NCBI RefSeq assembly: GCF_900112175.1
Contig: NZ_FOYT01000002.1
Location: forward strand, 62,001-126,000
Source of the DNA: Halogeometricum rufum
Lineage (GTDB): Archaea > Halobacteriota > Halobacteria > Halobacteriales > Haloferacaceae
Reading direction: 5' to 3'
Length of the DNA: 64,000 nucleotides
Position numbers and translations under genes: made by a program. A model generated the notes under the pieces. That model saw only the letters and a list, made by a program, of their open reading frames with translations, was not told the origin of the DNA and searched no databases. How positions within the stretch are numbered: the stretch's first letter is position 1; each line of letters starts with the position of its first letter. This document shows, one piece after another, positions 1 to 14,732 of this stretch.

Positions 1-774
1 ACTTCCACTATCTTGCTTGTGGCATTCCAGCAGAAGATCGTCATCCCAGTCTCGCCACGTTCTCCCGGGTTTGGACTGCTTCACTCGCTCAAGATTCTCT
101 TCCGAAAGCTCTCGGGCAGTATGGAGCCAATCGTTTGGGTGATGCTCGCCATCTGCCTTAATTTTCGGAAGGTGACCGATAGCCTCCTTTACGGTAGGAT
201 AGTCACTCTCATCTGTAATCGGGGGGGTGCCGAGATCTAACCGTCCCTCCTTAGAACCGGTCACGACCCATCTACGACGTTTCTGAGGGATACCGTACTC
301 TGGGCAGTAGACACGTTTGTCGTCCCTGGGATTTAGGTTGTAACCGAGATTCTGAACCTTATCTATGAACTGTTCGTAGACTTCGGCTCGCCTCACCTCA
401 TATACGTTCTCCATCACGACGAAGTCGGGATCTACCACCTCAATGATCGCAGCGAGGTGAGAGAGGAGACCATACATCGCATGATCACTGCTCTCTTTTC
501 CGTGGTTTAATGGAGAAAACGGCTGACAAGGTGCACAAGCTGCGATGAGCGTCGCATCTGCGTCGTCGTCCAGATACTCTCCGATGAGAGTAGGCTCATC
601 ACGAGCAACTTTGGCTAAGTTTTTGTGGACGAACTCTGCGTCGTTGTTCTCCTCGTAGGCGTATTCGCAGTCCTCGTCGTTATCAAAACCCGCCTCGACC
701 GAGATACCTGCGGCTTCGAGCCCGTTGGTGAGGCCCCCAGCGCCACAGAACAAGTCGACGGCGGATACCTTCAT
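1..774 (-). CDS. C5-cytosine DNA methyltransferase M1 (partial, runs off left edge)
   Basis: First 258 codons of a DNA (cytosine-5) methyltransferase that transfers a methyl group from SAM to cytosine in DNA. The frame is open from the ATG at 774 to base 1. Visible motifs are SAM-binding motif I (VDLFCGAGG, residues 6-14), the catalytic Pro-Cys loop (CAPCQPFS, catalytic Cys83), ENV motif VI (E122-N123) and QKRRR motif VIII. The target-recognition region and motifs IX/X are beyond the edge, so specificity and completeness cannot be judged. It is a clear paralogue of the methyltransferase at 3585-4637: both carry DCEYAYEENNDAEFV and TWRDWD. Together with the glycosylase and GHKL ATPase on the same strand it looks like part of a restriction or epigenetic defence cluster. 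Confidence 0.93.
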   Translation of the reverse strand, partial: MKVSAVDLFCGAGGLTNGLEAAGISVEAGFDNDEDCEYAYEENNDAEFVHKNLAKVARDEPTLIGEYLDDDADATLIAACAPCQPFSPLNHGKESSDHAMYGLLSHLAAIIEVVDPDFVVMENVYEVRRAEVYEQFIDKVQNLGYNLNPRDDKRVYCPEYGIPQKRRRWVVTGSKEGRLDLGTPPITDESDYPTVKEAIGHLPKIKADGEHHPNDWLHTARELSEENLERVKQSKPGRTWRDWDDDLLLECHKQDSGS

Positions 775-899: not shown

Positions 900-1544
900 C
901 TAACCATCAACTCCGGCGTACTGTGTCTCGTAGTAGTCACAGAACCTGTTCGCGAAGCACTCAGGACACTTCGGTGTCGGAGTACAGACGGCCGCCCCGA
1001 GATCCAAGAGAGCAAGGTTATACGTCCTCGCTTGCTCAGGTGGGAGGACCTTGTCTGCAAATTCGAGTTGTTCCCGCTTCGTGTCTGGCCAATCGTCGCC
1101 GAACACTCGGCCGTACACTCTGTCGACGTTCCGGTCGAGTATCGGTACCTGTCGATCGAGTGCAAAACACACCGTCGCGTTGGCGACGTAGTCGCCGACG
1201 CGAGTTAACTCCGTGAGTTCGTCCGCATCACGAGGCAGAGAGTCGTAAGACGTAGCAATTTCGTCTAATGCCTCTACCCGCATGTTGTAGAAGCCGAGTG
1301 GTTCGATGACTTCGACGAGCGATTCGACGTCCGAACAGCGGATCGCGTCTAACGATGGGAACTCGGACAAGAATCGCGGGTAGACTCGCGCGACGTTCGC
1401 TGCAGGCGTCTGTGTGAGGAAGAACTCTGCGACGAACACTTCGTAGAGTGAAGCGTCTAGGTCTCTCCACGGGAACTGACGGAGGTTGTCCTCGGCCCAA
1501 TCGAGGAGACCGGCTCTGAACGGTTCGATACGCGACTCGTCCAC
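900..1544 (-). CDS. Mig-like DNA glycosylase (G:T mismatch) of the HhH-GPD family
   Basis: A 214-residue endonuclease III/MutY-fold glycosylase. It has the helix-hairpin-helix (TRVGDYVANA, residues 114-123), catalytic aspartate D137 in PILDRNVDRV, MutY-like E40 in AEFFLTQT, and an iron-sulfur cluster loop C187-x5-C193-x2-C196-x5-C202. At the position of the AP-lyase lysine of Nth (K120) and of the serine of MutY it has Tyr119. From established knowledge, that tyrosine is the hallmark of Mig.Mth, a thymine-DNA mismatch glycosylase encoded beside an m5C methyltransferase in Methanothermobacter. MutY's C-terminal MutT-like domain is absent. Inference: it repairs G:T mismatches left when 5-methylcytosine made by the neighbouring methyltransferases deaminates. 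An adenine glycosylase is the alternative. Confidence 0.85.
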   Translation of the reverse strand: MDESRIEPFRAGLLDWAEDNLRQFPWRDLDASLYEVFVAEFFLTQTPAANVARVYPRFLSEFPSLDAIRCSDVESLVEVIEPLGFYNMRVEALDEIATSYDSLPRDADELTELTRVGDYVANATVCFALDRQVPILDRNVDRVYGRVFGDDWPDTKREQLEFADKVLPPEQARTYNLALLDLGAAVCTPTPKCPECFANRFCDYYETQYAGVDG

Positions 1545-1597: not shown

Positions 1598-3598
1598 TCA
1601 GTCGAACACGTTACCGTCGTCGATCTGATCCAAGAGACGGGAGACGCGCCCGGCGCGAGAGTCGTCCGAGATACGTGCCTCGTAGGTGTCTGCAGTCTCC
1701 TCTAGGAGGTCGTGGTACTTCCTCACGACGATACCTTGTCTCTTGAGCATCCCCTCCAAGTCGTTCCACGCGTCGGTGTCCGGAACGACGAAGACGATGT
1801 TCGTCGACTGTGCGTCCCGGTCTCGTTCTTCGATTTCGACGTCGAGTGCCCGTTGGAACGTGCCGACGAGTTCGAGGAGTCCAGTTCCCGCAGGCTCGGT
1901 CGGATGGCGAAGCGAGACCAGTGTGAACCCTACTGCGGTCCGGACGCATCGAACTCCGGATCCGTCGTCGCCGGTCACCTCCCGCAACCGCCTCTGAACA
2001 CCTCGTCGGATGTCCGCGCTTACTGGCGTCTCTTCCCAAGAGGGGTCGAGTAACCAAGGATGTTCCACGAGGTGCCCGTGCATCTCGTCGTCTACGCCCC
2101 CCTCTTCGACGCGAGATAGGAACGCGTCTACTGCCTCCTTTCGATGGGAGAGCATCTGGTGGTGCTGCGACGAATCGACGTCGTCCAAATCCGAGAGGAC
2201 GCGAGATACGGTGCGTTCGTCGCTCTCACTCAGGTCGTCTATCCCCTCGAGCTTGTCTCTGTACTTCATGTTCTCGAAGGCCAGCACGCCGTACTTGAAG
2301 AGCTCTCGCCGGTCCGATTCGTCTTCGAGCGACATACGGCCGATCTTGCCGAGGAGACTCTGAGCGCGGTCGCGCTGGTCGGGGTCGAGACTCTCGTACC
2401 ACATGTCGATCGCACCGATCTTACGGGCTTCTCGAGACTCCTGTTCGTTCCGGAGGTCGTTCCACTTCCCGGCGATGTGACTTAGTTCGACTCGCAGGAA
2501 GTCGAGGAGATCCTGGTACCGTGGGTCCTCCTTGACGACGTCCTCTCGGTTCGACGTCGCGATGTCGTCCTCGTCGTCGTAGTCGAGGAAGTCCGCGTGT
2601 ATCTCGCCGACGAGGTACTTCGTGAACATCCGGCTATCGTTGACGCTCTCCAAGAGGTCTGGCTTCGCCATCCGGCCGCGGACCATCAAGGAGACCTTGT
2701 TGAGGTCGTCCGCGTCGGTGTTCTGTCCGGGGTAGTCTTCGACGAGGTCGTTCGGCTTCTCTACGGTACCGATCCAGCCAGAGATCTCGTATCCGTTCTC
2801 GGTCTCGCCACCTCTCTCCTCGTGATGTTCGAGCTTGGAGTCCCGGCAGTACTCACGGTAGTGGTGGTCACCGAACGTCCAGAGGAACTGGACTTTGTGG
2901 AAGTAGTCGCGGTCCGTCACGGTCACCTCCTCGCCGTTGATACGGACCGTGAAGTCGTACTCTGAACCGAGGATACTGAACCGTCGGGCGAGTCGTTTCC
3001 GTAGTGCGTGCTCGGTCGTGTGGATACGCTTCGTGAGGTCAGAGAGGACGAGCTTCGTCCCCTCTCGCAATCCGGGCGGAAAGTCGTCTAGCGGCCTCGG
3101 GACGTACTGCCGTTGTGGTGCACCCGACGAAGACTCTTCTTCGCCGATGGCGCGTTCGATCTCGCTCAGCTCCAGTCGGAAGGCGTTTCGGTCACCGTCT
3201 TTCGCGGTGTAGACGTCGACAGTCTCCGCCACCGAGAGCAGAGAGAGCTTACCGATGCCCTTTCGGCCCATGACCGGCCGTCCGTGTTCGGGAGTCCGGT
3301 TCGGTCGTTCCTCGTCACGTCGTCGTCGGTACCCGACCCTGAGGTACCGCTCGTTCACGTCACCTGCGTCCATCCCGTGCCCGTCATCGACGATTTCGAT
3401 ACGACCGTCGTCGGGGTAGATGTCGACGTCGACGTTCTCCGCGTCGGCGTCCCACGCGTTCGCGACTGCCTCGGATAACACCGCGGGGACGTTACTGTAG
3501 AGGTTCAGGCCTAGGTGGTTCAGCACGTTGAGGCTGAGGGACATCTTGTAGGGCGAGTCGTCGTCCCGTTCGGAGCCGTCGATATCAGGCTGCGACAT
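1598..3598 (-). CDS. GHKL ATPase, MORC/MutL-like, restriction-associated
   Basis: 666 residues. The N-terminal third is a GHKL (gyrase/Hsp90/histidine kinase/MutL) ATPase: motif I LSEAVANAWDADA (E43, N47, D50), motif II DDGHGM (71-76) and the glycine lid GRKGIGK (111-117). The middle is charged and helical. Near residue 535 is an EHPWLLDPSWE motif like that heading the nuclease-like C-terminal domain of Shedu/DUF4263-type proteins, but I see no intact PD-(D/E)xK signature after it. Relatives described as prokaryotic MORC/paraMORC proteins occur in restriction-modification clusters. The ATG at 3598 was chosen because upstream codons lie inside the methyltransferase gene; the two genes overlap by 14 bp, indicating translational coupling. 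The role as DNA remodeller or restriction subunit is inference. Confidence 0.85.
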   Translation of the reverse strand: MSQPDIDGSERDDDSPYKMSLSLNVLNHLGLNLYSNVPAVLSEAVANAWDADAENVDVDIYPDDGRIEIVDDGHGMDAGDVNERYLRVGYRRRRDEERPNRTPEHGRPVMGRKGIGKLSLLSVAETVDVYTAKDGDRNAFRLELSEIERAIGEEESSSGAPQRQYVPRPLDDFPPGLREGTKLVLSDLTKRIHTTEHALRKRLARRFSILGSEYDFTVRINGEEVTVTDRDYFHKVQFLWTFGDHHYREYCRDSKLEHHEERGGETENGYEISGWIGTVEKPNDLVEDYPGQNTDADDLNKVSLMVRGRMAKPDLLESVNDSRMFTKYLVGEIHADFLDYDDEDDIATSNREDVVKEDPRYQDLLDFLRVELSHIAGKWNDLRNEQESREARKIGAIDMWYESLDPDQRDRAQSLLGKIGRMSLEDESDRRELFKYGVLAFENMKYRDKLEGIDDLSESDERTVSRVLSDLDDVDSSQHHQMLSHRKEAVDAFLSRVEEGGVDDEMHGHLVEHPWLLDPSWEETPVSADIRRGVQRRLREVTGDDGSGVRCVRTAVGFTLVSLRHPTEPAGTGLLELVGTFQRALDVEIEERDRDAQSTNIVFVVPDTDAWNDLEGMLKRQGIVVRKYHDLLEETADTYEARISDDSRAGRVSRLLDQIDDGNVFD

Positions 3599-4637
3599 CG
3601 TGCACCTCCAGATGGTCTGCGATACTGCGTCCGATCGCCTCGCCGAGTCGAACGGGGACGGCGTTGCCGACCATCCGTCCGACCTTCTTGAACTCCACTT
3701 CTTCGCCTTCCTCGACGAAGGCGTAATCCTCCGGGAACGTCTGTAGCATCGCCCCCTCACGAAGCGAGATGGCTCGATCTTCCTCAGGATGTCCGAACCG
3801 GCCGCTACCGTAGTTGTAGAACTGAGTCGTCATCGTAGGGGCTGGGGCGTCCCACTCCATTCGTCCGTACACAGAGTCGAACGAGCGTCCGCTCTCCTTC
3901 CGGTGGCAGTCGAGGAGCAATTCTTGATCCCAGTCTCGCCACGTCCCTCCCGGGAGCGACTGTCTGATTCGTTTGAGGTTTCGCTCTACGAGCGTCCGCG
4001 ACTTGTGAAGGTGGTCCTCGGCATGTTCCTCGCCCGCTTCGAGAGGTGGTAAGTCCCCGATCACCTCGCGGACCGTCGGGTAGTCGGAAGGATCGTGCGT
4101 AGGATCTATCAACGAGATGTCGCCGAGTTTCGAGGCTAGTAGGACGACACGGTGGCGTCGTTGTGGGATACCGTAGTCAGGACAGCTGACCTTGTCGAAC
4201 CAGATCTGGTACCCCTCCCTGAACAAGGTGTTCACGAAGTCGGAGTAGACCGATTCGTTCCTCACCTCGGCTACGTTCTCCATCGTGACGACTTCGGGTT
4301 GGACGTCTTCGACGAGGGCTCCGAAGCTCTCGAGGAGCCCGTAGTCGTCGCGGACCGACGTGTCCGTCCCGTTGTTCAAGTTCGAGAACGGCTGGCAGGG
4401 TGCACAACCAGCGAGTACCTTCGTAGCCCCATCCGGATATAGTTCTGACAGATCCGATGCTTCGAGTTCAGATACGTCTTCGTCGACGAACTCGGCGTCG
4501 TTGTTCTCCTCGTAGGCGTACTCACAGTCGAGATTGATCTCGATACCGGCGGCGACTGGTATCCCTGCCCGTTCGAGACCGTGGGTCAGACCCCCGACAC
4601 CACAGAAGAGATCGACTGCGGCCACGTCGGGACTCAT
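3585..4637 (-). CDS. C5-cytosine DNA methyltransferase M2
   Basis: Complete 350-residue m5C methyltransferase: motif I VDLFCGVGG (8-16), catalytic CAPCQPFS (Cys81), TMENV (118-122), PQRRHR (158-163), a target-recognition region from about 200 to 290, and C-terminal GRMVGNAVP (motif IX/X). Length is typical for a stand-alone Dcm-type enzyme. The ATG at 4637 is preferred over an upstream in-frame start because GGAGG (4647-4651 on the minus strand) sits nine bases before it and a TATA box lies further up. It overlaps the GHKL ATPase gene by 14 bp. Having two related methyltransferases in one cluster is typical of systems that methylate the two strands of an asymmetric site, which is inference here. 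Confidence 0.93.
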   Translation of the reverse strand: MSPDVAAVDLFCGVGGLTHGLERAGIPVAAGIEINLDCEYAYEENNDAEFVDEDVSELEASDLSELYPDGATKVLAGCAPCQPFSNLNNGTDTSVRDDYGLLESFGALVEDVQPEVVTMENVAEVRNESVYSDFVNTLFREGYQIWFDKVSCPDYGIPQRRHRVVLLASKLGDISLIDPTHDPSDYPTVREVIGDLPPLEAGEEHAEDHLHKSRTLVERNLKRIRQSLPGGTWRDWDQELLLDCHRKESGRSFDSVYGRMEWDAPAPTMTTQFYNYGSGRFGHPEEDRAISLREGAMLQTFPEDYAFVEEGEEVEFKKVGRMVGNAVPVRLGEAIGRSIADHLEVHDVAA

Positions 4638-4683
4638 CGACAGATCCCTCCAGAATGCATCGTATGGGCCATATTCATAGGTA

Positions 4684-4689
4684 CTTATA
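4684..4689 (-). promoter_or_regulatory. TATA box upstream of methyltransferase M2
   Basis: Minus-strand TATAAG about 50 bases before the ATG at 4637. With start of transcription about 25 bases downstream this leaves a short leader containing the GGAGG ribosome-binding site at 4647-4651, so M2 and the GHKL ATPase can be expressed apart from the upstream DUF262 gene. Confidence 0.5.
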
Positions 4690-6472
4690 CCACGTTCGTC
4701 TCGGCTGCAGAGTCGACCCAGTGTTCGATACACTCCTCCACGAGCCTCTCGTGACGCTCTTTGAGGCGTTTCGGCGTCCAACTGTCGAGTTCGGACAGCT
4801 CGTTCGTTATCGCGAAGTCACTCTTCTTCTCGAAGTACTCTCGGTACTTCTTGGGGAAGGGCCGGTTACTCGCCTTGTAGTTCTTGCGACCGTCCAAGAG
4901 CACGAGGTTCCCCAGACGGTTCGTCCACTTCTCGCGTTCCAGCTCGTCACTGAACCGCTGCGTCCAGTACCCACTATTCGGGTTCTGTGGGAGGATGTGT
5001 TCGACGTTGATGTTCTGGCCGTACTGGATCTTGACGTTACGGTTGTCGAACCGCTCCATGTCGAGTCGCATCAGGATGTACTTCGGCCACTGATAGTTCC
5101 CCTTCCGGTAGAAGTTACGGAGGTTGAGCGCCTCTCTGAAGTCCTCTCTGTCGTCACGGAGGCCGTCTACGAGGTGAGTGGAGTCGAGGGCTTCTCTCGG
5201 ACCGTCGGCCGACTCGATGTCTCTGAGGATGCTGTAGATTCGTGAGTAGCGGTCACTACTCGACGCGCCGGTCAACCAATCGACCGTGAGCCGCCGTTCG
5301 AGGTGGCGGACGAACTCGAAGAGGAGGCCTTCGTCGTCGAACTGTTTGTCGAACTCGATCAGGGCGACGACCCACTCGTCGGAGGGGTAGAAATCCCGCA
5401 TCACCGAGACGAGGTTCGCGTAGTAGACGTTCTTGTGCTCGTCGTCCGCGTGAAGTTCGGCGTCGTAGACTCGCTCGCGGTGTACGTCGAATACCTGTCC
5501 GAGTTCGTCGACGAAGTCTCGTCCACGATAACTCGGATCCTTCGTGAAGACCTCGCTGAACTCGTCGTAGATCGACTTTCGAGACTTGTCCTTCACCAAG
5601 ATATGGCGCATGTAGCCGATGAACCGTTCGAGTCCCTCGTTGCCGACCTCCTCTTCCATGTCTTCCCACTTCCGCTGGTACTCGTCGCGGTCAGATTCGG
5701 GGATCTGGCTTAGGTTCTCGCTCTTAAGCAGGTCGGCGTTGTTAAGGGGCATCCCCCGGGCGTTCGTGACGTTGAACAGGCGGAACGCAGAACTCAGCGA
5801 GTCGGTCATGATTCGGACCATTACGACACGCTGTGGGATGAACGCGGCTAACGAGGTCAGGTCGTTCCCCTCGTTCACCCACTCTTGGAGCCGTTCGTCG
5901 AAGGTAGAGACCGCTTGGAGGATGTTCTGCTGGGGTTCCGTATCACCGTCTGCGGGGTCGGCAGGTTCGAGCGTCGCACCGCGCTCTAGCACGTTCTTCT
6001 CGAAGAAAGACTGGTCACGGTCGCGGATTCGGAGCCTGACCGATCCTTCTTGTCCCTTGGCGAAGTCTTCTTCCTCTTGGACGAATCGATCCAGCGAGGT
6101 CGCCCAGCCTCGATGTTCGAGTCTATCCCTGAGGACACAGAGCAAGATAGCCACAGAAGTGAGCCGTTGTTGACCGTCGATCACGTCGAACCTATCGCCG
6201 GTCGACCCTCCTCGGTTCAAGATGATGCTCCCCAAGAAGTACGGTTCGTAGGCCTCGGTGCGCGACTTGTCGAGTTTTCGGTTCGAGTTCAACAGGTCGC
6301 CATGTATCTCGGCGTTCGACTCGTATGCGTCAGTCAAGTCGTCGACGAGATCGACGAAGTTCTCCTCTGTCCACGAGAAGGGGCGTTGGAACTTGGGGAT
6401 CTGGTAGAGGTAATCTTCTCCATACAATTTGTGGACGAACTCTTCCTCGGCGTCGATCTGACTTCCGCTCAC
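4685..6472 (-). CDS. DUF262-DUF1524 (GmrSD/SspE-type) nuclease-NTPase
   Basis: About 595 residues with the two halves of GmrSD-type proteins. The N-terminal DUF262 (ParB/Srx-like) has IPKFQRPFSW (25-34) and DVIDGQQRLTSV (96-107). The C-terminal DUF1524 HNH-like nuclease has EHILPQ (His492) and RLGNLVLLD followed by N531 and N536. In characterised relatives (GmrSD, SspE, BrxU) DUF262 senses DNA modification and uses nucleotide while DUF1524 nicks DNA. Start: GTG at 6472 lies about 28 bases after a TATA box; a TTG at 6490 would add six residues. The stop is 47 bp before M2. Placed with two m5C methyltransferases, it is probably an effector that reads methylation status (inference). Confidence 0.88.
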   Translation of the reverse strand: MSGSQIDAEEEFVHKLYGEDYLYQIPKFQRPFSWTEENFVDLVDDLTDAYESNAEIHGDLLNSNRKLDKSRTEAYEPYFLGSIILNRGGSTGDRFDVIDGQQRLTSVAILLCVLRDRLEHRGWATSLDRFVQEEEDFAKGQEGSVRLRIRDRDQSFFEKNVLERGATLEPADPADGDTEPQQNILQAVSTFDERLQEWVNEGNDLTSLAAFIPQRVVMVRIMTDSLSSAFRLFNVTNARGMPLNNADLLKSENLSQIPESDRDEYQRKWEDMEEEVGNEGLERFIGYMRHILVKDKSRKSIYDEFSEVFTKDPSYRGRDFVDELGQVFDVHRERVYDAELHADDEHKNVYYANLVSVMRDFYPSDEWVVALIEFDKQFDDEGLLFEFVRHLERRLTVDWLTGASSSDRYSRIYSILRDIESADGPREALDSTHLVDGLRDDREDFREALNLRNFYRKGNYQWPKYILMRLDMERFDNRNVKIQYGQNINVEHILPQNPNSGYWTQRFSDELEREKWTNRLGNLVLLDGRKNYKASNRPFPKKYREYFEKKSDFAITNELSELDSWTPKRLKERHERLVEECIEHWVDSAAETNVV

Positions 6473-6494
6473 GATGAATGTGAGTGTCAAGTAT

Positions 6495-6782: not shown

Positions 6783-6926
6783 GTGACAGACGATGGTAAT
6801 CCATATTGGAGACGACGTTTTCCGAATGACGTCGTGTTTCGCGCTTCTAGATGTCCACTCCTGTCAATTGGCAGCACACAGAGGTTGACTGTAGGCCGCT
6901 TTAGTATCGCGAGAACTGACCGATGA
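6783..6926 (+). CDS. Candidate 47-codon leader ORF overlapping the GHKL ATPase start
   Basis: Opens with GTG a few bases after the start expected from the TATA box at 6746-6756, and its TGA (6924-6926) overlaps the ATG of the next gene (6923) in an ATGA arrangement. The product (begins VTDDGNPYWRRRFPND) is basic and unlike the acidic proteins around it, so it may act only through translational coupling. The open frame actually begins further up, at a TTG inside the promoter. I have no homology evidence, and it could be chance. Confidence 0.3.
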   Translation: MTDDGNPYWRRRFPNDVVFRASRCPLLSIGSTQRLTVGRFSIARTDR

Positions 6927-8941
6927 GTCTCGGATGGAAGTTCAGCCGGGCCTCTACCGAGGATGGCCGGTCGGGAGGGGATCCAGCGGCGTACGCCTTC
7001 GAGAACGATCTTGAGGACTTCGTCCGAGAGACCCTCCAGAACGCGAACGACGCCGGCCCAGAGAACGAAGACGAGCCGGTGAGCGTTACTTACCACCTGA
7101 AGGAGTACTCTGGTTCAGACCTCCAAGACCTCTTCGCTGCGGTTGATTGGAGTGAGGAGATTGACGGTGACTCGGAGACCGAAGAGTACCTCAAAGATCA
7201 CCTTCAGACGGTCGCGGACTCTGGACAAGATGATGCCCTCGCCCGTCTTCTAGATGAGTTAGAAGATGACGGTAGTCTGCTGATGGTGACGGTCGCAGAC
7301 ACGAACACACACGGGCTCTTCGGTGCGGAAGGTGGTAGTGGACCCTTCTCTGCGTTAGTCCTTGATGACCTAGTCACCGAGAACAAGGAATCCGGCGCTG
7401 GCGGAAGCTACGGACTAGGCAAGGCCGTTCTCTGGAGTTGGTCTGGGCTCTCAACCGTACTCTTCACTTCCCACCCAAGAGACTGCAATGGCAACGAGCC
7501 ACCACGTCTCATAGCTCGAACCCAACTTCCGTCCCACGAGATTGACGACGACCAGTATCGCTACCTAGGCAGGGGGTTCTTTGGATACTTAGACGAGAGC
7601 GAACGGGACGTGCGAATCGACTCAGACGGAGAGACAAGGTACAAGTGGGGGAAGAACCCAGGCCGACCACTCTCGGCATGGGGTGACGAAGCCGAGAGTA
7701 TAGTTAATCAGATTGGGGTTCCCACACCACAGAGGGAGGGAACTAGTGTTTCCGTACTGGGATTCTGCCCGCCTGGATCCGATAATCAGCCGAACGTTGA
7801 AGACCTAGCGGACGACATCGCCCAAGAGGCCTCAAAGTGGTTCTGGCCTGCCATGCTCCGCGGTTCATTGGAGGTCAACATCGAGACTGATTCGGATACT
7901 CGTGTGGTAGACACCACAGAGTGCGAAGAAGTGATCCCGTTCGTCGAGTGTATTCGGAGTAGAGAGTCAACGGTGGACGTCTTGGACAAACCAGGCGACA
8001 TCGCAGTCACCTCACCGACGTTCGAGATCCCGGACAAGAAACCTGGAGAGACTGAAGAGGAAGAGGATCCAGCGACCGAAGATGGTCCAATCAACGTCTA
8101 TGCACGGCTCGCCGACCCGGAGCGTGACCTCGGCCTGAAGAATCGCGTCGCGCTCGTCCGAGGGCCGGGGATGGTCGTCAAGTACTACAATCGAAACCGG
8201 ATCGTCTACGGCGACCGCACATTCCACGGGGTCGTCCTGGCTGGAAACGCACGGACATGGAACGGTGAATCGACCCAGGCAGACCGAGATATCGAAGACT
8301 TGCTCACGGCTGCTGAACCCCCGACTCACAAAAATTGGGAGAAGACCCGAAACCTCCTTGAGAAGTACGCCGAAGACGACGCAACTTCTTGCATCAACAA
8401 CCTTCAGAGGAATTTGATCACTGAGGCATTGAAATCTTTGGTCCAGGTTTCGCGAGAGGGAGGAGAGTTCGTCGCTGCAGGACTGGCAGAACGGTTATCT
8501 CTCCCCGAAGCCGGAGCAGAAGGGGGGTCTGGTAGCGGTGGTGGCGGTGGTGGCGGTAGTGGCGGAGGTGGTGGAGGTGGCGGCGGCGGTGGTTCTCCGA
8601 CTGTCACAGGTGATCGTAGTGTCACCTTCGACCACAACGAGGGCCGTTGGTCGTTCGAGGGAGACATCAACGTCGGTGTCCATCCTCACGGGATCTGGGA
8701 ACTCAGAGTCACGATCCAACAGCTTAGTGAGGAGGGGAACGTTATCGATCAAATACCTGTCGGAGTCGTGAGTTGTGGGAACGACGACGTATACGTTGAC
8801 GACACGGGATCCGAAGCACTCCTGAGGGCACCTACGCACGTAGACACGATCAAGTTCATTGGCCGAACAGTCGTTGACCGAGAGCGGCTACAGACACGGC
8901 TGAACATCAACGCTACCGTTCAAGAGGTGGACGAGTCGTGA
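6923..8941 (+). CDS. GHKL ATPase of a three-gene defence-like operon, with poly-glycine linker
   Basis: 672 residues. N-terminal GHKL ATPase: RETLQNANDA (E36, N40, D43), VADTNTHGL (D126, G131) and the lid GGSYGLGK (160-167). A conserved-looking middle contains VALVRGPGMVVKYY and AAEPPTHKNW, consistent with an S5-like second half of the ATPase module. Residues about 533-557 are almost pure glycine/serine and connect to a C-terminal beta-rich domain of about 110 residues. It differs from the GHKL protein at 1598-3598 in motif spelling and architecture, so they are not recent duplicates. The GTGA overlap with the next gene and the two-base gap after that make this a three-gene operon. Defence function is inferred from company and family. 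Confidence 0.8.
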   Translation: MSLGWKFSRASTEDGRSGGDPAAYAFENDLEDFVRETLQNANDAGPENEDEPVSVTYHLKEYSGSDLQDLFAAVDWSEEIDGDSETEEYLKDHLQTVADSGQDDALARLLDELEDDGSLLMVTVADTNTHGLFGAEGGSGPFSALVLDDLVTENKESGAGGSYGLGKAVLWSWSGLSTVLFTSHPRDCNGNEPPRLIARTQLPSHEIDDDQYRYLGRGFFGYLDESERDVRIDSDGETRYKWGKNPGRPLSAWGDEAESIVNQIGVPTPQREGTSVSVLGFCPPGSDNQPNVEDLADDIAQEASKWFWPAMLRGSLEVNIETDSDTRVVDTTECEEVIPFVECIRSRESTVDVLDKPGDIAVTSPTFEIPDKKPGETEEEEDPATEDGPINVYARLADPERDLGLKNRVALVRGPGMVVKYYNRNRIVYGDRTFHGVVLAGNARTWNGESTQADRDIEDLLTAAEPPTHKNWEKTRNLLEKYAEDDATSCINNLQRNLITEALKSLVQVSREGGEFVAAGLAERLSLPEAGAEGGSGSGGGGGGGSGGGGGGGGGGGSPTVTGDRSVTFDHNEGRWSFEGDINVGVHPHGIWELRVTIQQLSEEGNVIDQIPVGVVSCGNDDVYVDDTGSEALLRAPTHVDTIKFIGRTVVDRERLQTRLNINATVQEVDES

Positions 8942-9990
8942 GCGACTCGGAGGGCGCGTCTGGTGACTCTGTGGCCGATCTCTCTAGCTTCGACTTCTCG
9001 GGGCTTGAGACGCGTTCAGGGAACCTTAGAGCCTCTAAACTCCCCCACGCGCACGACCCAGAGGGGCTGCAGTGGGAACTCGTTGGGAACGAAACATCCG
9101 AAGGCGAGTCGTTAGCACTGGACGTAGAATCTCGCGGCCGGCTCGTCGGTCGAAACTGGGACGAGTTGGAGTTGAACTTCGAAGTGACGGTCACCGACGA
9201 CCTCTACGATACTGTAGTTCCCTCTGACGAAGATGGATCACACGCAATCCTGGGTATCGTATACTTCTGTCGTTCCACAATCCTTCGCGATGTTAGTGAG
9301 ACCGTGACGGTGGACGGTGCAGACACGTACGAACTCTCTGTTACGCTGCAGAAGGAGGACCTTCGTGATTCGGTCGTCCTGAACCCAGCCCTCGCTCGCT
9401 CTGACTCCACAGGGACAGACGAGAACTACGCGACAAACGAGGGTCATAGGATGGCAGAAGGAGATCTCTGGACCATCGAGCTCGACCACGTCGGGTCTCT
9501 GGGGAGCCTCCTCCAACCACGCGAGAAGAAATTTAGCGAGGACGACGACTTCCCAGACGAGGATCACCTCGTATTCGTCGACTTCGAACGGAACCCTCCA
9601 CGGATCTTCGTCAACTCTGATCACGAGCGGATCGTAGCTTGTCTCAATTCGGATAGCAACCAGGGGTGGGAGGCTAGTGCCCGTGAGGTACTCTACAACC
9701 ACATCGAGTCGCAGATTTGGCCACAGCTCATCCTCGAAGCGGCCGCTGGTATCTCTGACGACGGAGATGTGCCCGAAGAGGAGTGGAAACGAGCCGTGAT
9801 AGAGAAGTTCAGAGAGCCGTTGTACGGTGAGGAGATAGACTACGAAGACGCAGTCACGAATCTACGGGAGGATACAAGTTCCCCTGAACGAGTAAGGAGA
9901 CTGATTCAGGATATTGATGACGCCGTCCAGACGAAGACTAACCCCCCGAGCGATGCGATGTCCCTGCTCAACCTGATTGATCGGAGGTAA
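8938..9990 (+). CDS. Hypothetical protein, second gene of the GHKL operon
   Basis: 350 acidic residues starting at a GTG that overlaps the ATPase stop (GTGA), so translation is coupled. The first half looks beta-rich (alternating hydrophobic strands, for example LELNFEVTVTDDLYDTVV), much like the C-terminal domain of the preceding ATPase. The second half is helical with conserved-looking aromatics (ESQIWPQLILEAA). I do not recognise a family or catalytic motif. It probably forms a complex with the ATPase, judging only from coupling and shared fold impression. Confidence 0.7.
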   Translation: MSDSEGASGDSVADLSSFDFSGLETRSGNLRASKLPHAHDPEGLQWELVGNETSEGESLALDVESRGRLVGRNWDELELNFEVTVTDDLYDTVVPSDEDGSHAILGIVYFCRSTILRDVSETVTVDGADTYELSVTLQKEDLRDSVVLNPALARSDSTGTDENYATNEGHRMAEGDLWTIELDHVGSLGSLLQPREKKFSEDDDFPDEDHLVFVDFERNPPRIFVNSDHERIVACLNSDSNQGWEASAREVLYNHIESQIWPQLILEAAAGISDDGDVPEEEWKRAVIEKFREPLYGEEIDYEDAVTNLREDTSSPERVRRLIQDIDDAVQTKTNPPSDAMSLLNLIDRR

Positions 9991-9992
9991 CC

Positions 9993-10682
9993 ATGGCGGA
10001 ACAACTTAAACGACTCACACCGGAAGGCCACTACCGCGTCAAAAAGCACCTGAAGGAAGGAGAGCACGTTTCAAAGCTCCCAGACGATATTGAGGAGAAT
10101 GTCGTCGAAATTCCGAATCTAGAAGCGGATCTTGACGGTCTAGAGGACGATTTGGAAGCAGCAATAGCTGAAGGCGACGTCGTATCGGGACGGTCGCGTG
10201 GAACCACTATTGACGCCCACGCGGCCCCACAGGTCCATCAGCGGATAGATATCGACCGTCGAGACGCGGCTATCGATGGACTCTGGCATTGGCTCTGTGT
10301 TTTCCGGTTCCGGGAGTTCGTCTACGACCGGTGGGACACAGGTGGAAACATCGTTGAGAAGTTCCTGGCCGGCGGGACGAATATCTACTCCAACGCTATC
10401 CATCGGCTCTGGTGGGGTGCCGAGTTGACACACGAAGGAGACGACTACAGCCGTACACGCACCCTGTTCAGCCAAGGCGAACTCGCGAACGACATATTGG
10501 ACCGTCGTTTCGCCCGATGCGAGTCTGCAGCTCAAGTCGTAACTGACGAACTAGATGGTGAGCCGTCATCCCGAATTAGTAAGACGACGAGGAACTTGCG
10601 GAACGAGTTGTCTCTTTACACACTTGAACTCATGTCCGAAGAGGGAATCGCTAGACTGGTAGACGAAGTAGAGGAAGGATAG
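9993..10682 (+). CDS. Hypothetical protein, third gene of the GHKL operon (possibly DUF6339-like)
   Basis: 229 residues beginning two bases after the previous stop. A helical core contains WHWLCVFRFREFVYDRW and, about 35 residues on, IHRLWWGAELTHEGDDYSRT. From memory this Trp-rich pattern resembles the DUF6339 family, which occurs beside GHKL ATPases in bacterial defence loci; that assignment is tentative. No nuclease motif is evident. As the last gene of a tightly coupled operon it is likely a structural or effector partner. Confidence 0.65.
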   Translation: MAEQLKRLTPEGHYRVKKHLKEGEHVSKLPDDIEENVVEIPNLEADLDGLEDDLEAAIAEGDVVSGRSRGTTIDAHAAPQVHQRIDIDRRDAAIDGLWHWLCVFRFREFVYDRWDTGGNIVEKFLAGGTNIYSNAIHRLWWGAELTHEGDDYSRTRTLFSQGELANDILDRRFARCESAAQVVTDELDGEPSSRISKTTRNLRNELSLYTLELMSEEGIARLVDEVEEG

Positions 10683-12661: not shown

Positions 12662-13088
12662 CCGTCACGCAGCGACGTATCCGAGCGAGGAGCAGTATCA
12701 GCGGTGGCAAGACCGCGCGAACGAGATGGGGATGTCCACTTCGGAGTTCATCGAAGCGATGGTCGAGGCGGGGATGAAGAAGTTCACCGCCGCCGTCGAA
12801 CCCGACGAAACGAACCAAGAGCTCCGAGATCAGCGACGGGAACTGAAGGACGAACTCGACCACACGCGGAGTCGGGTTCGAGAACTGGAGGACATGGTCT
12901 ACCACGGAGAGCGCCGGACCATCAAACGCTACGTCGACGACAACCCGGGCGCGACGTACGACGAGATCATCCAGCACCTCATCGAGACCGTCCCGAGCCG
13001 AGTAACTACCCACCTCGGTGACCTCGAAGGAGACGAACTCCGGTACGAGGACGAAGGCTACTACCCGGCCACCGGAGACCGTTCCTGA
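12651..13088 (+). CDS. RHH and coiled-coil DNA-binding protein
   Basis: 145 residues in three parts: an N-terminal CopG-like segment (SEEQYQRWQDRANEMGMSTS, then EFIEAMVEAGMKKF), a charged coiled coil from about residue 55 to 85 (ELRDQRRELKDELDHTRSRV), and a C-terminal winged-helix-like segment (TYDEIIQHLIETVPSRVTTH). It overlaps the previous gene by 11 bp and ends in TGATG shared with the next. Likely an architectural or regulatory partner of the recombinase. Confidence 0.65.
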   Translation: MANSRHAATYPSEEQYQRWQDRANEMGMSTSEFIEAMVEAGMKKFTAAVEPDETNQELRDQRRELKDELDHTRSRVRELEDMVYHGERRTIKRYVDDNPGATYDEIIQHLIETVPSRVTTHLGDLEGDELRYEDEGYYPATGDRS

Positions 13089-13633
13089 TGGCCCGAGGTG
13101 ACACCGACACTTCTGACCGCGCTACCAACGAAATCGGAGAGCGAGATGTCGAATACTGGCTGGGCGTGTACAAGTCGATAGACGAGGTTCCGAGCCGATA
13201 TCGACTGGAGAGCTTCTCGTCCGAGTTCGCTGGGAAGGATACGTGGAGCGACTACTTGGACACTCGTGACGACCTCGCGGAGTCGACGAAGAAGAACTCG
13301 TGGTATCCGTGCGGCGACCGCTTCAAGAAGTTCATGCGGGAGGAAGTAGGGCGACACCACGCCCTCGCTCACCCGGACGACATCGAAGCGTATCTGAGCC
13401 ACATCAAAGACGGCGGCTACTCGATCAAGGTCACAGAGCGGTCCTCGAACACCGTCTACTACCAGCACCTCTCTCCGCTGAAGACGTTCTTCGCGTGGTT
13501 GGTCCACCACGTCGACTACCCGCACGTCTACAACCCCCTCCTACTGGCGGCCCACGCGGGAGGAGTCACGCGCGAGGTGTGGTACTGGCAGACCGAATAC
13601 AAACCCGGGTACGCGGAGCGACGAGATGAGTGA
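13088..13633 (+). CDS. Core-binding-domain protein, recombinase accessory
   Basis: 181 residues resembling the N-terminal SAM-like core-binding domain of tyrosine recombinases (STKKNSWYPCGDRFKKFMRE, HPDDIEAYLSHIKDGG, LSPLKTFFAWLVHHVDYPHV) but with no catalytic domain of its own. The next gene, which overlaps it by eight bases, carries its own core-binding and catalytic domains. It may be a paralogous half-recombinase that binds arm or core sites. Confidence 0.65.
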   Translation: MARGDTDTSDRATNEIGERDVEYWLGVYKSIDEVPSRYRLESFSSEFAGKDTWSDYLDTRDDLAESTKKNSWYPCGDRFKKFMREEVGRHHALAHPDDIEAYLSHIKDGGYSIKVTERSSNTVYYQHLSPLKTFFAWLVHHVDYPHVYNPLLLAAHAGGVTREVWYWQTEYKPGYAERRDE

Positions 13634-14732
13634 AAACCAAGCGACCCACGAAACGATAGCACAGGCGTTCGGTCGAACGACCGATCCGCTGGCAGAGTAC
13701 GACGGTCGATTCAAGCAGCTCGACGTAGACCCGTTCCAACTCTGGTTGGAGGAGCAGGTCTACACGAAGGATTACGCGAAGGGGACGGTCCAGGCGTTAG
13801 AGCGTCCGATCGATCAGTGGTGCGAGTTCATGGCCGAACGTCACGACCGCCACCCGGCAGTTCCGACGACGAGCCACGTCATGGACTTCGCTCACTACTA
13901 TCTGGAGGAGCGAGACAACTCGAAGAACACGGTCGGCGTGAAGTTGGGTACGCTCAGCCGAGTGTTCCGCTACTTCCAAAGCGAACCTGCATTCCCTCAT
14001 CCCACGGATTTCAATCCGTTCGACGCCGCGAAGGGAAAGATCGACCTGAACGGCGACGATCCGAAGGAACCGCGTCCCATCCCGCTGGAAGAACTTCGGA
14101 ATGTTCTGCAGAACGAGGTCAAGCATGTCCGTGATAGGGCGCTCATCGTCATGCAGTTCAAGCTCGGACTCCGGGCGTCAGAGACGGCGAACATCAAACT
14201 GAGCGAGATCCACATCGCCAACGCGGAACTGCAGGACCACTACGAAGAATTGGGCACGCACCCGGCGCTCGAAGGACGACCCAACGCGGTCTTCATCCCG
14301 CACGACCGAGAGCGGAACAAGTCCGAGCGGCCGCGCGTGCTGCCGCTTGACGACGAACTTCGTCGCGTGCTGCTCCAGTATCTGCTATGCAGGCCGGATA
14401 ACGGCGAGCCGTGGCTATTCCTCTCGAAATCGGGCGGTAAGAAGGTCGGCCACACGAATATCAACGACGTTTGGAAGAAGTACTTCCGACCGGAGTACGG
14501 ACCGAACGAGCGGTATCGCGGTGTGTCGTCGCACTACGGTCGTCACTACTTCACGACGTGGTTCAGCATCGAGCGAGAGTGGCCGCGTGACCTCATCAAG
14601 TATCTTCGAGGTGACCGGCAGAGTGGTGGGAAGATTCGGTCTACGCGAGACGCTATTGACTCGTACATTCATGCGTGGTACGAGGATATAGAAGATCGAT
14701 ATCGGGAGGATATCTATAAGCTTCGGATATAA
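13626..14732 (+). CDS. Tyrosine recombinase / integrase (XerC/D-like)
   Basis: 368 residues. N-terminal core-binding domain (about 30-125), then a catalytic domain with arginine I in LGLRASETANIKLSEI, the H-x-x-R box in SSHYGRHYFTTW, and the nucleophile tyrosine in DAIDSYIHAWY near the C-terminus. It cuts and rejoins DNA at att sites by a 3'-phosphotyrosyl intermediate. As the last gene of a chain of overlapping small DNA-binding genes, about 1.1 kb from the mutY junction, it is the likely agent of insertion of the island. Confidence 0.9.
   Translation: MSENQATHETIAQAFGRTTDPLAEYDGRFKQLDVDPFQLWLEEQVYTKDYAKGTVQALERPIDQWCEFMAERHDRHPAVPTTSHVMDFAHYYLEERDNSKNTVGVKLGTLSRVFRYFQSEPAFPHPTDFNPFDAAKGKIDLNGDDPKEPRPIPLEELRNVLQNEVKHVRDRALIVMQFKLGLRASETANIKLSEIHIANAELQDHYEELGTHPALEGRPNAVFIPHDRERNKSERPRVLPLDDELRRVLLQYLLCRPDNGEPWLFLSKSGGKKVGHTNINDVWKKYFRPEYGPNERYRGVSSHYGRHYFTTWFSIEREWPRDLIKYLRGDRQSGGKIRSTRDAIDSYIHAWYEDIEDRYREDIYKLRI

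What the first reader, a model, noticed from the sequence alone, without database searches (positions are those of the whole stretch)
900..1544. Glycosylase carries Tyr119 at the Nth-lysine position, the mark of G:T-specific Mig enzymes
Seen: TRVGDYVANA aligns with LPGVGRKTAN of Nth, placing Tyr at the AP-lyase Lys and the MutY Ser position; D137 is kept. Known: Mig.Mth has this Tyr and removes T from G:T beside an m5C methyltransferase. Here two m5C methyltransferases flank the gene, so the prediction is consistent from two independent lines.
Basis: partly seen in the sequence, partly recalled or inferred. Interest (0 to 1): 0.65.

Follow-up and report, generated by a model that had tools for sequence, protein, structure and literature searches.

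The report
Thymine glycosylase partnering m5C methyltransferases

Summary
The gene (900-1544, minus strand, 214 aa) is a real HhH-GPD glycosylase. Tyr119 does align with Mig.Mth Tyr126 and the Nth lysine. But Tyr is not a mark of Mig: all 29 haloarchaeal MutY compared, this genome's own MutY and Geobacillus MutY have it too.

The Mig assignment nevertheless stands on other evidence:
- Both published Mig/MutY discriminators are Mig-type: A48 (Mig A50; MutY V/L) and L177 (Mig L187; MutY Q/E/N).
- There is no MutY C-terminal domain.
- The protein lies outside a well-supported MutY clade, with Mig.Mth on its side of the tree.
- The AlphaFold model's best PDB match is Mig.Mth (1kea).

Of 79 other Mig-like genes, 70 have an m5C methyltransferase within 5 kb, against 0 of 29 housekeeping mutY. 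One homologue is fused to such a methyltransferase. Vsr, the usual bacterial repair partner, was found in 0 of 391 Halobacteria. Here the gene lies in an HgiDII/BbrUII-type restriction-modification locus flanked by two GHKL/DUF6339 (PDC-M33-like) modules; sister loci carry DISARM.

Best reading: a dedicated T:G repair companion of m5C methyltransferases, so a new member of a known kind. Activity is untested; a direct antiviral role is not excluded.

The parts
900..1544 (-). Mig-type HhH-GPD DNA glycosylase, 214 aa; E40, A48, Y119, D137, L177 and four cluster cysteines (C187, C193, C196, C202)
1188..1190 (-). codon of Tyr119 (Nth-lysine / Mig Tyr126 position)
1..774 (-). m5C methyltransferase MT1, 364 aa (its 3' end lies outside the window, at -320); best PADLOC profile DrmMII; 55% identical to MT2
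1598..3598 (-). BbrUII/HgiDII-family restriction enzyme with GHKL ATPase domain (ORF runs 1598-3760; likely start Met at 3598)
   Evidence: NF050001, 639.7 bits, cut-off 550; PADLOC REase_II
3585..4637 (-). m5C methyltransferase MT2 (ORF 3585-4781; likely start Met at 4637), the probable cognate modification enzyme of the restriction enzyme
   Evidence: PF00145 7.9e-50
4685..6490 (-). GmrSD-like (DUF262/DUF1524) type IV restriction protein
   Evidence: PF03235 and PF07510; PADLOC Orf5/HEC-06/SspE-like
6923..8941 (+). GHKL-like protein, PDC-M33A-like (right module)
   Evidence: PDLC04582 3.1e-20
8938..9990 (+). second protein of the M33-like module (no family match)
   Evidence: gene order; homologues of this slot recur in 23-24 loci
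9993..10682 (+). probable DUF6339 / PDC-M33C-like third gene of the right module
   Evidence: same gene order as the left copy (L008:8935-9666, PF19866); itself not scanned

Best explanation
A Mig-type monofunctional thymine/uracil-DNA glycosylase that works as the Vsr-equivalent companion of the m5C methyltransferases encoded beside it. The methyltransferases mark cytosines (for the HgiDII/BbrUII-type system probably within GTCGAC). Hydrolytic deamination of m5C gives T opposite G. The glycosylase flips out and removes that T (or U) by the E40/D137 mechanism; Tyr119 in place of Lys means no lyase step, so AP endonuclease, polymerase and ligase finish the repair. It thereby pays off the mutational cost of m5C-based restriction/defence in a clade where no Vsr was found. 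Shown here: family, residues, fold, linkage, absence of Vsr. Inferred: substrate, target sites, repair outcome.
For: Mig residue set E-A-Y-D-L shared with Mig.Mth; 29 haloarchaeal MutY read E-L-Y-D-N, Geobacillus E-V-Y-D-E, E. coli E-V-S-D-Q. A50V/L187Q turns Mig into an A/G enzyme (Fondufe-Mittendorf et al., as reported in PMC2714593). No C-terminal 8-oxoG domain: the protein ends 12 residues after the last cluster Cys. Outside the MutY clade (98/96); on one side of a branch with Mig.Mth (96/86; 81/66 with methanogens added). AlphaFold model (pLDDT 91) best matches 1kea: TM 0.89, rmsd 1.9 A, against at most 0.85 for MutY. PADLOC model PDLC03398 'Type II nicking endonuclease' 1.1e-26. m5C MTase within 5 kb of 70/79 Mig-like genes against 0/29 MutY. 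Natural MTase-glycosylase fusion L067. Mig.Mth itself on pFV1 near an m5C MTase and NgoPII-type REase. Vsr in 0 of 391 Halobacteria. The genome keeps its own full-length MutY.
Against: No activity data. Pairwise similarity does not separate Mig from MutY (99.4 against 100.4 bits), and NCBIfam's best (sub-threshold) model is mutY. Column 187 varies among linked relatives (L/F/Y/W/E/M) and column 50 includes G/S, so the two residues are not an absolute code; the reciprocal mutations in E. coli MutY gave no T/G activity (PMC2714593). Joint monophyly with Mig.Mth is only moderate in the wider tree. Six of 79 relatives have no MTase in reach. The locus is a defence island, so a defence role is possible.
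Confidence: 0.78

Rival explanations
1. A MutY-type adenine glycosylase (A:8-oxoG or A:G) or a decayed MutY duplicate that sits beside the methyltransferases by chance.
For: Nearly equal pairwise scores to MutY and Mig; mutY is the best NCBIfam model, though far below cut-off (144 of 286 bits); E40 and Tyr119 are shared with MutY.
Against: A48/L177 instead of V/L and Q/E/N; no C-terminal domain; excluded from a 98/96 MutY clade; own MutY present; linkage to MTases 70/79 against 0/29.
Confidence: 0.08
2. A defence effector: it excises a base from invading DNA (modified or deaminated pyrimidines, or bases in unmethylated sites), as Brig glycosylases or R.PabI do by other folds.
For: The gene sits inside M33-like, HgiDII-type RM and, in sister loci, DISARM loci; L060 and L090 keep it beside DISARM genes without a detected m5C MTase; base-excision immunity exists (PMC10273834, PMC13160076).
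Against: The constant partner across archaea, Thermus, Caldicellulosiruptor and pFV1 is the m5C MTase, with varying or no other defence genes; Brig3 is assigned to the uracil-DNA-glycosylase superfamily, not HhH-GPD; the characterised relative is a repair enzyme.
Confidence: 0.1
3. A generalist G:U/G:T or other-lesion BER glycosylase recruited into mobile islands without coupling to m5C sites.
For: Mig.MthI also takes U:G and weakly other mispairs (PMC2714593).
Against: Then linkage to m5C MTases specifically, including a fusion, would not be expected.
Confidence: 0.04

Closest known systems
Mig.MthI (Methanothermobacter plasmid pFV1; PDB 1kea), T:G/U:G glycosylase
   Same: HhH-GPD fold (TM 0.89), E42/A50/Y126/D144/L187 equivalents, short protein, [4Fe-4S] cysteines, encoded near an m5C MTase and REase on a mobile element
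   Different: About 28% identity; cluster spacing C-X5-C instead of C-X6-C; haloarchaeal; HgiDII/BbrUII-type RM and GHKL/DUF6339 modules instead of MthTI; activity untested
MutY / MUTYH
   Same: Same superfamily, Tyr at the Nth-Lys position in most MutY compared, catalytic Glu and Asp
   Different: No C-terminal 8-oxoG domain; A48/L177; outside the MutY clade; linked to m5C MTases
Vsr very-short-patch endonuclease
   Same: Same proposed role and gene position: corrects T:G from m5C deamination beside a cytosine MTase
   Different: Unrelated fold and chemistry (base excision instead of nicking); Vsr not found in 391 Halobacteria
MBD4 / TDG
   Same: T:G glycosylase function; MBD4 is HhH-GPD
   Different: MBD4 is only a weak match (about 4e-6) and lacks the Fe-S cluster (own knowledge); TDG has another fold (own knowledge)

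Membership tests
Mig (MutY-superfamily thymine/uracil-DNA glycosylase) | HhH-GPD core with [4Fe-4S] Cys motif and catalytic Asp | tested here: met
   D137; C187, C193, C196, C202 invariant in A1; 1kea top fold match
Mig (MutY-superfamily thymine/uracil-DNA glycosylase) | Ala50 and Leu187 in the base pocket (against Val and Gln/Glu of MutY) | tested here: met
   A48 and L177; criterion from PMC2714593
Mig (MutY-superfamily thymine/uracil-DNA glycosylase) | Tyr at the Nth-Lys position (no AP lyase) | tested here: met
   Y119, but not specific: also in MutY
Mig (MutY-superfamily thymine/uracil-DNA glycosylase) | Same clade as Mig.Mth, apart from MutY | tested here: met
   96/86; only 81/66 with wider sampling
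Mig (MutY-superfamily thymine/uracil-DNA glycosylase) | Linked to an m5C methyltransferase | tested here: met
   70/79 relatives within 5 kb against 0/29 MutY
Mig (MutY-superfamily thymine/uracil-DNA glycosylase) | T:G and U:G excision in vitro | not testable with these tools
   needs an assay
MutY | C-terminal NUDIX-like 8-oxoG recognition domain | tested here: not met
   Protein ends 12 aa after the cluster; 214 aa against 308-560-aa frames of haloarchaeal MutY
MutY | Val45/Gln182 (E. coli) adenine pocket and place in the MutY clade | tested here: not met
   A48/L177; excluded by a 98/96 branch
Nth (endonuclease III) | Catalytic Lys for AP lyase | tested here: not met
   Tyr119
HgiDII/BbrUII type II RM (neighbours) | REase over curated NF050001 cut-off, with m5C MTase overlapping its gene | tested here: met
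   639.7 against 550 bits; MT2 overlaps the REase start
HgiDII/BbrUII type II RM (neighbours) | Recognition of GTCGAC | not testable with these tools
   inferred from the family only (PMC5867850)

The most novel reading that the evidence does not exclude
Across Halobacteria a Mig-type glycosylase is a conserved working part of several distinct m5C-based immune systems (HgiDII-type RM, M33-like GHKL/DUF6339 islands, DISARM), where it is not only a repair tool but contributes directly to self/non-self discrimination or attack on viral DNA by base excision.
Probability: 0.1. Interest if true: 0.8.

Novelty: new member of a known kind. Interest (0 to 1): 0.5.

Why it matters
m5C methylation is mutagenic because its deamination product is an ordinary base. 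Bacteria such as E. [quoted passage not shown] A base-excision counterpart that travels with m5C methyltransferases across restriction, M33-like and DISARM loci would explain how these archaea afford m5C-based immunity. It also gives a clean genetic test (C-to-T mutation at the methylated motif) of whether immune systems carry their own mutation insurance. Such genes are now annotated 'hypothetical protein' in the nearest plasmid records.

Tried and rejected
Tyr119 as a Mig-specific mark: rejected, it is universal in the MutY sampled except E. coli. Pairwise PDB scores and NCBIfam as discriminators: uninformative, Mig and MutY tie. Chance neighbourhood: rejected with MutY controls (0/29). MutY identity: rejected on residues, domain, tree and fold. 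Phage collection: only weak matches of about 23-35% identity, no close relative. The single genome-contig scan gave 11 haloarchaea and one Hydrogenothermaceae MAG. PDC-M33 in the literature: no paper in the held library names it. Tests of MTase specificity were not attempted. Fisher p values are descriptive only because the loci are related by descent.

Full report
WHAT IS THERE. The gene lies at 900-1544 on the minus strand, 214 aa, start GTG. The start is conserved in the 68%-identical Haloferax prahovense homologue (MDESRV...). It matches HhH-GPD (2.4e-13). Downstream, 126 bp away, is m5C methyltransferase MT1 (window -320..774). Upstream are a BbrUII/HgiDII-family restriction enzyme (1598-3598; NF050001 639.7 bits, cut-off 550), a second m5C methyltransferase MT2 whose end overlaps it (3585-4637) and a GmrSD-like protein (4685-6490). 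MT1 and MT2 are 55% identical. They are two of only three PF00145 genes in the genome.

Tyr at the Nth-lysine position is not a mark of Mig. All 29 haloarchaeal MutY controls, this genome's own MutY (about 5 kb left of the window; LMGVGPYTANAV) and Geobacillus MutY have Tyr; E. coli MutY has Ser. Tyr therefore excludes Nth-type lyase chemistry, nothing more. Pairwise scores do not decide either: Geobacillus MutY 100.4 bits, Mig.Mth 99.4.

WHAT DOES DECIDE. (i) The two pocket residues shown to separate the enzymes: Mig A50/L187 against E. coli MutY V45/Q182, with A50V+L187Q turning Mig into an A/G enzyme (PMC2714593). The query has A48 and L177; haloarchaeal MutY have L and N, Geobacillus V and E. 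The converse mutations in E. coli MutY did not create T/G activity, so these residues are suggestive rather than sufficient. (ii) No C-terminal 8-oxoG domain. (iii) Trees: MutY form a 98/96 clade that excludes the query; query, Mig.Mth and relatives fall on one side of a branch (96/86, 81/66 in the wider sample). (iv) AlphaFold model, mean pLDDT 91: best PDB match 1kea, TM 0.89 and 1.9 A, against at most 0.85 and 2.4 A or more for MutY of E. coli, Geobacillus, mouse and human. (v) PADLOC already has a model that matches it, PDLC03398 'Type II nicking endonuclease', 1.1e-26.

CONTEXT TEST. I fetched 8-9 kb flanks of glycosylase homologues chosen by similarity to the query, from haloarchaea, other classes of the phylum and plasmids, with housekeeping MutY as controls. 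Excluding the window's own locus, an m5C methyltransferase lies within 5 kb of 70 of 79 Mig-like genes (44 of 49 in the first group of loci, haloarchaea plus three bacterial plasmids; 26 of 30 in other classes) and of 0 of 29 MutY (Fisher p about 1e-18, descriptive only because the loci are related by descent). In 56 of the 79 it is within 500 bp. Genes were classed by residues, not by neighbours. A separate haloarchaeal group with His at column 187 (8 genes), three Lys-type Nth-like genes and six other HhH proteins had none. L067 is a single 629-aa ORF in which an m5C methyltransferase is fused to a Mig-like domain (PF00145 residues 54-417, HhH-GPD 455-569). Mig.Mth on pFV1 also lies near an m5C MTase and REase, and plasmid relatives of Thermus and Caldicellulosiruptor lie beside m5C MTases.

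THE LARGER LOCUS. In 23-24 haloarchaeal loci of the query's clade the methyltransferase-glycosylase pair is flanked, often on both sides, by a three-gene module: a GHKL-like protein (PDC-M33A), a protein of about 350 aa, and a DUF6339 protein (PDC-M33C). No MutY control locus has it. The window shows the right copy (6923-10682); the left copy is at -4018..-334. Another Mig-like group stands in divergent pairs with an m5C MTase next to DISARM drmA/B/C. The glycosylase thus follows the methyltransferase from one immune system to another.

MECHANISM. Deaminated m5C is T opposite G. Vsr (PF03852) was found in none of 391 Halobacteria, including this genome, although the same search rings in E. coli and four other control genomes. 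The most economical reading is that Mig-type glycosylases are the haloarchaeal counterpart: a monofunctional T/U excision, completed by general BER. The likely mark here is in GTCGAC, by homology to HgiDII/BbrUII (PMC5867850); MT1's site is unknown. Substrate, motif and outcome are inferred.

NOVELTY. Mig.MthI established the kind, and PADLOC carries a profile that catches it. The 2023 survey of archaeal RM systems mentions Vsr but no glycosylase in its main text (PMC10609329), and the nearest plasmid relatives are annotated 'hypothetical protein'. The scale of the linkage, the fusion, the M33/DISARM settings and the absence of Vsr are what is worth reporting; I found no paper on them in the library searched, which is incomplete.

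Noticed in passing
window 6923-10682 and -4018..-334 (L008:5982-9666): Two copies of a GHKL + ~350 aa + DUF6339 module (PDC-M33-like) flank the RM/glycosylase genes; flanking copies of this module recur in over 20 haloarchaeal loci, often as twins.
   Followed up: partly
L067:9059-10945 (G100:C1): Single ORF fusing an m5C methyltransferase to a Mig-like glycosylase whose catalytic Glu position is Gln and column 50 is Pro.
   Followed up: partly
L070, L076, L080, L086, L089, L099: Mig-like glycosylase and m5C MTase divergent pair beside DISARM drmC/drmB/drmA.
   Followed up: partly
391 Halobacteria genomes: No Vsr (PF03852) match in any of them.
   Followed up: yes
L071, L073, L081, L082, L083, L088, L179: Second short MutY-like group with Ala or Val at column 50 but His at column 187 and no m5C MTase nearby; function unknown.
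   Followed up: no
L156, L157, L176: Relatives in other classes of the phylum with BbrUII-type ATPase and m5C MTase but Glu at column 187, as in Geobacillus MutY.
   Followed up: no
window 900-1544 (C187 to C193): Cluster motif is C-X5-C-X2-C-X5-C, one residue shorter than in Mig.Mth; 21 Mig-like genes show this spacing.
   Followed up: no
window -5083..-4466 (G000:C2:56917-57534): The housekeeping mutY of this genome lies at the edge of the same defence island.
   Followed up: no
window 13088-14732: Tyrosine-recombinase-like ORF pair just beyond the right module, suggesting a mobile island (read from sequence only).
   Followed up: no
L120:5062-5691 (Thermus plasmid pTthSNM7-6d): Unannotated Mig-like gene between an m5C MTase and an IS1634 transposase.
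   Followed up: no
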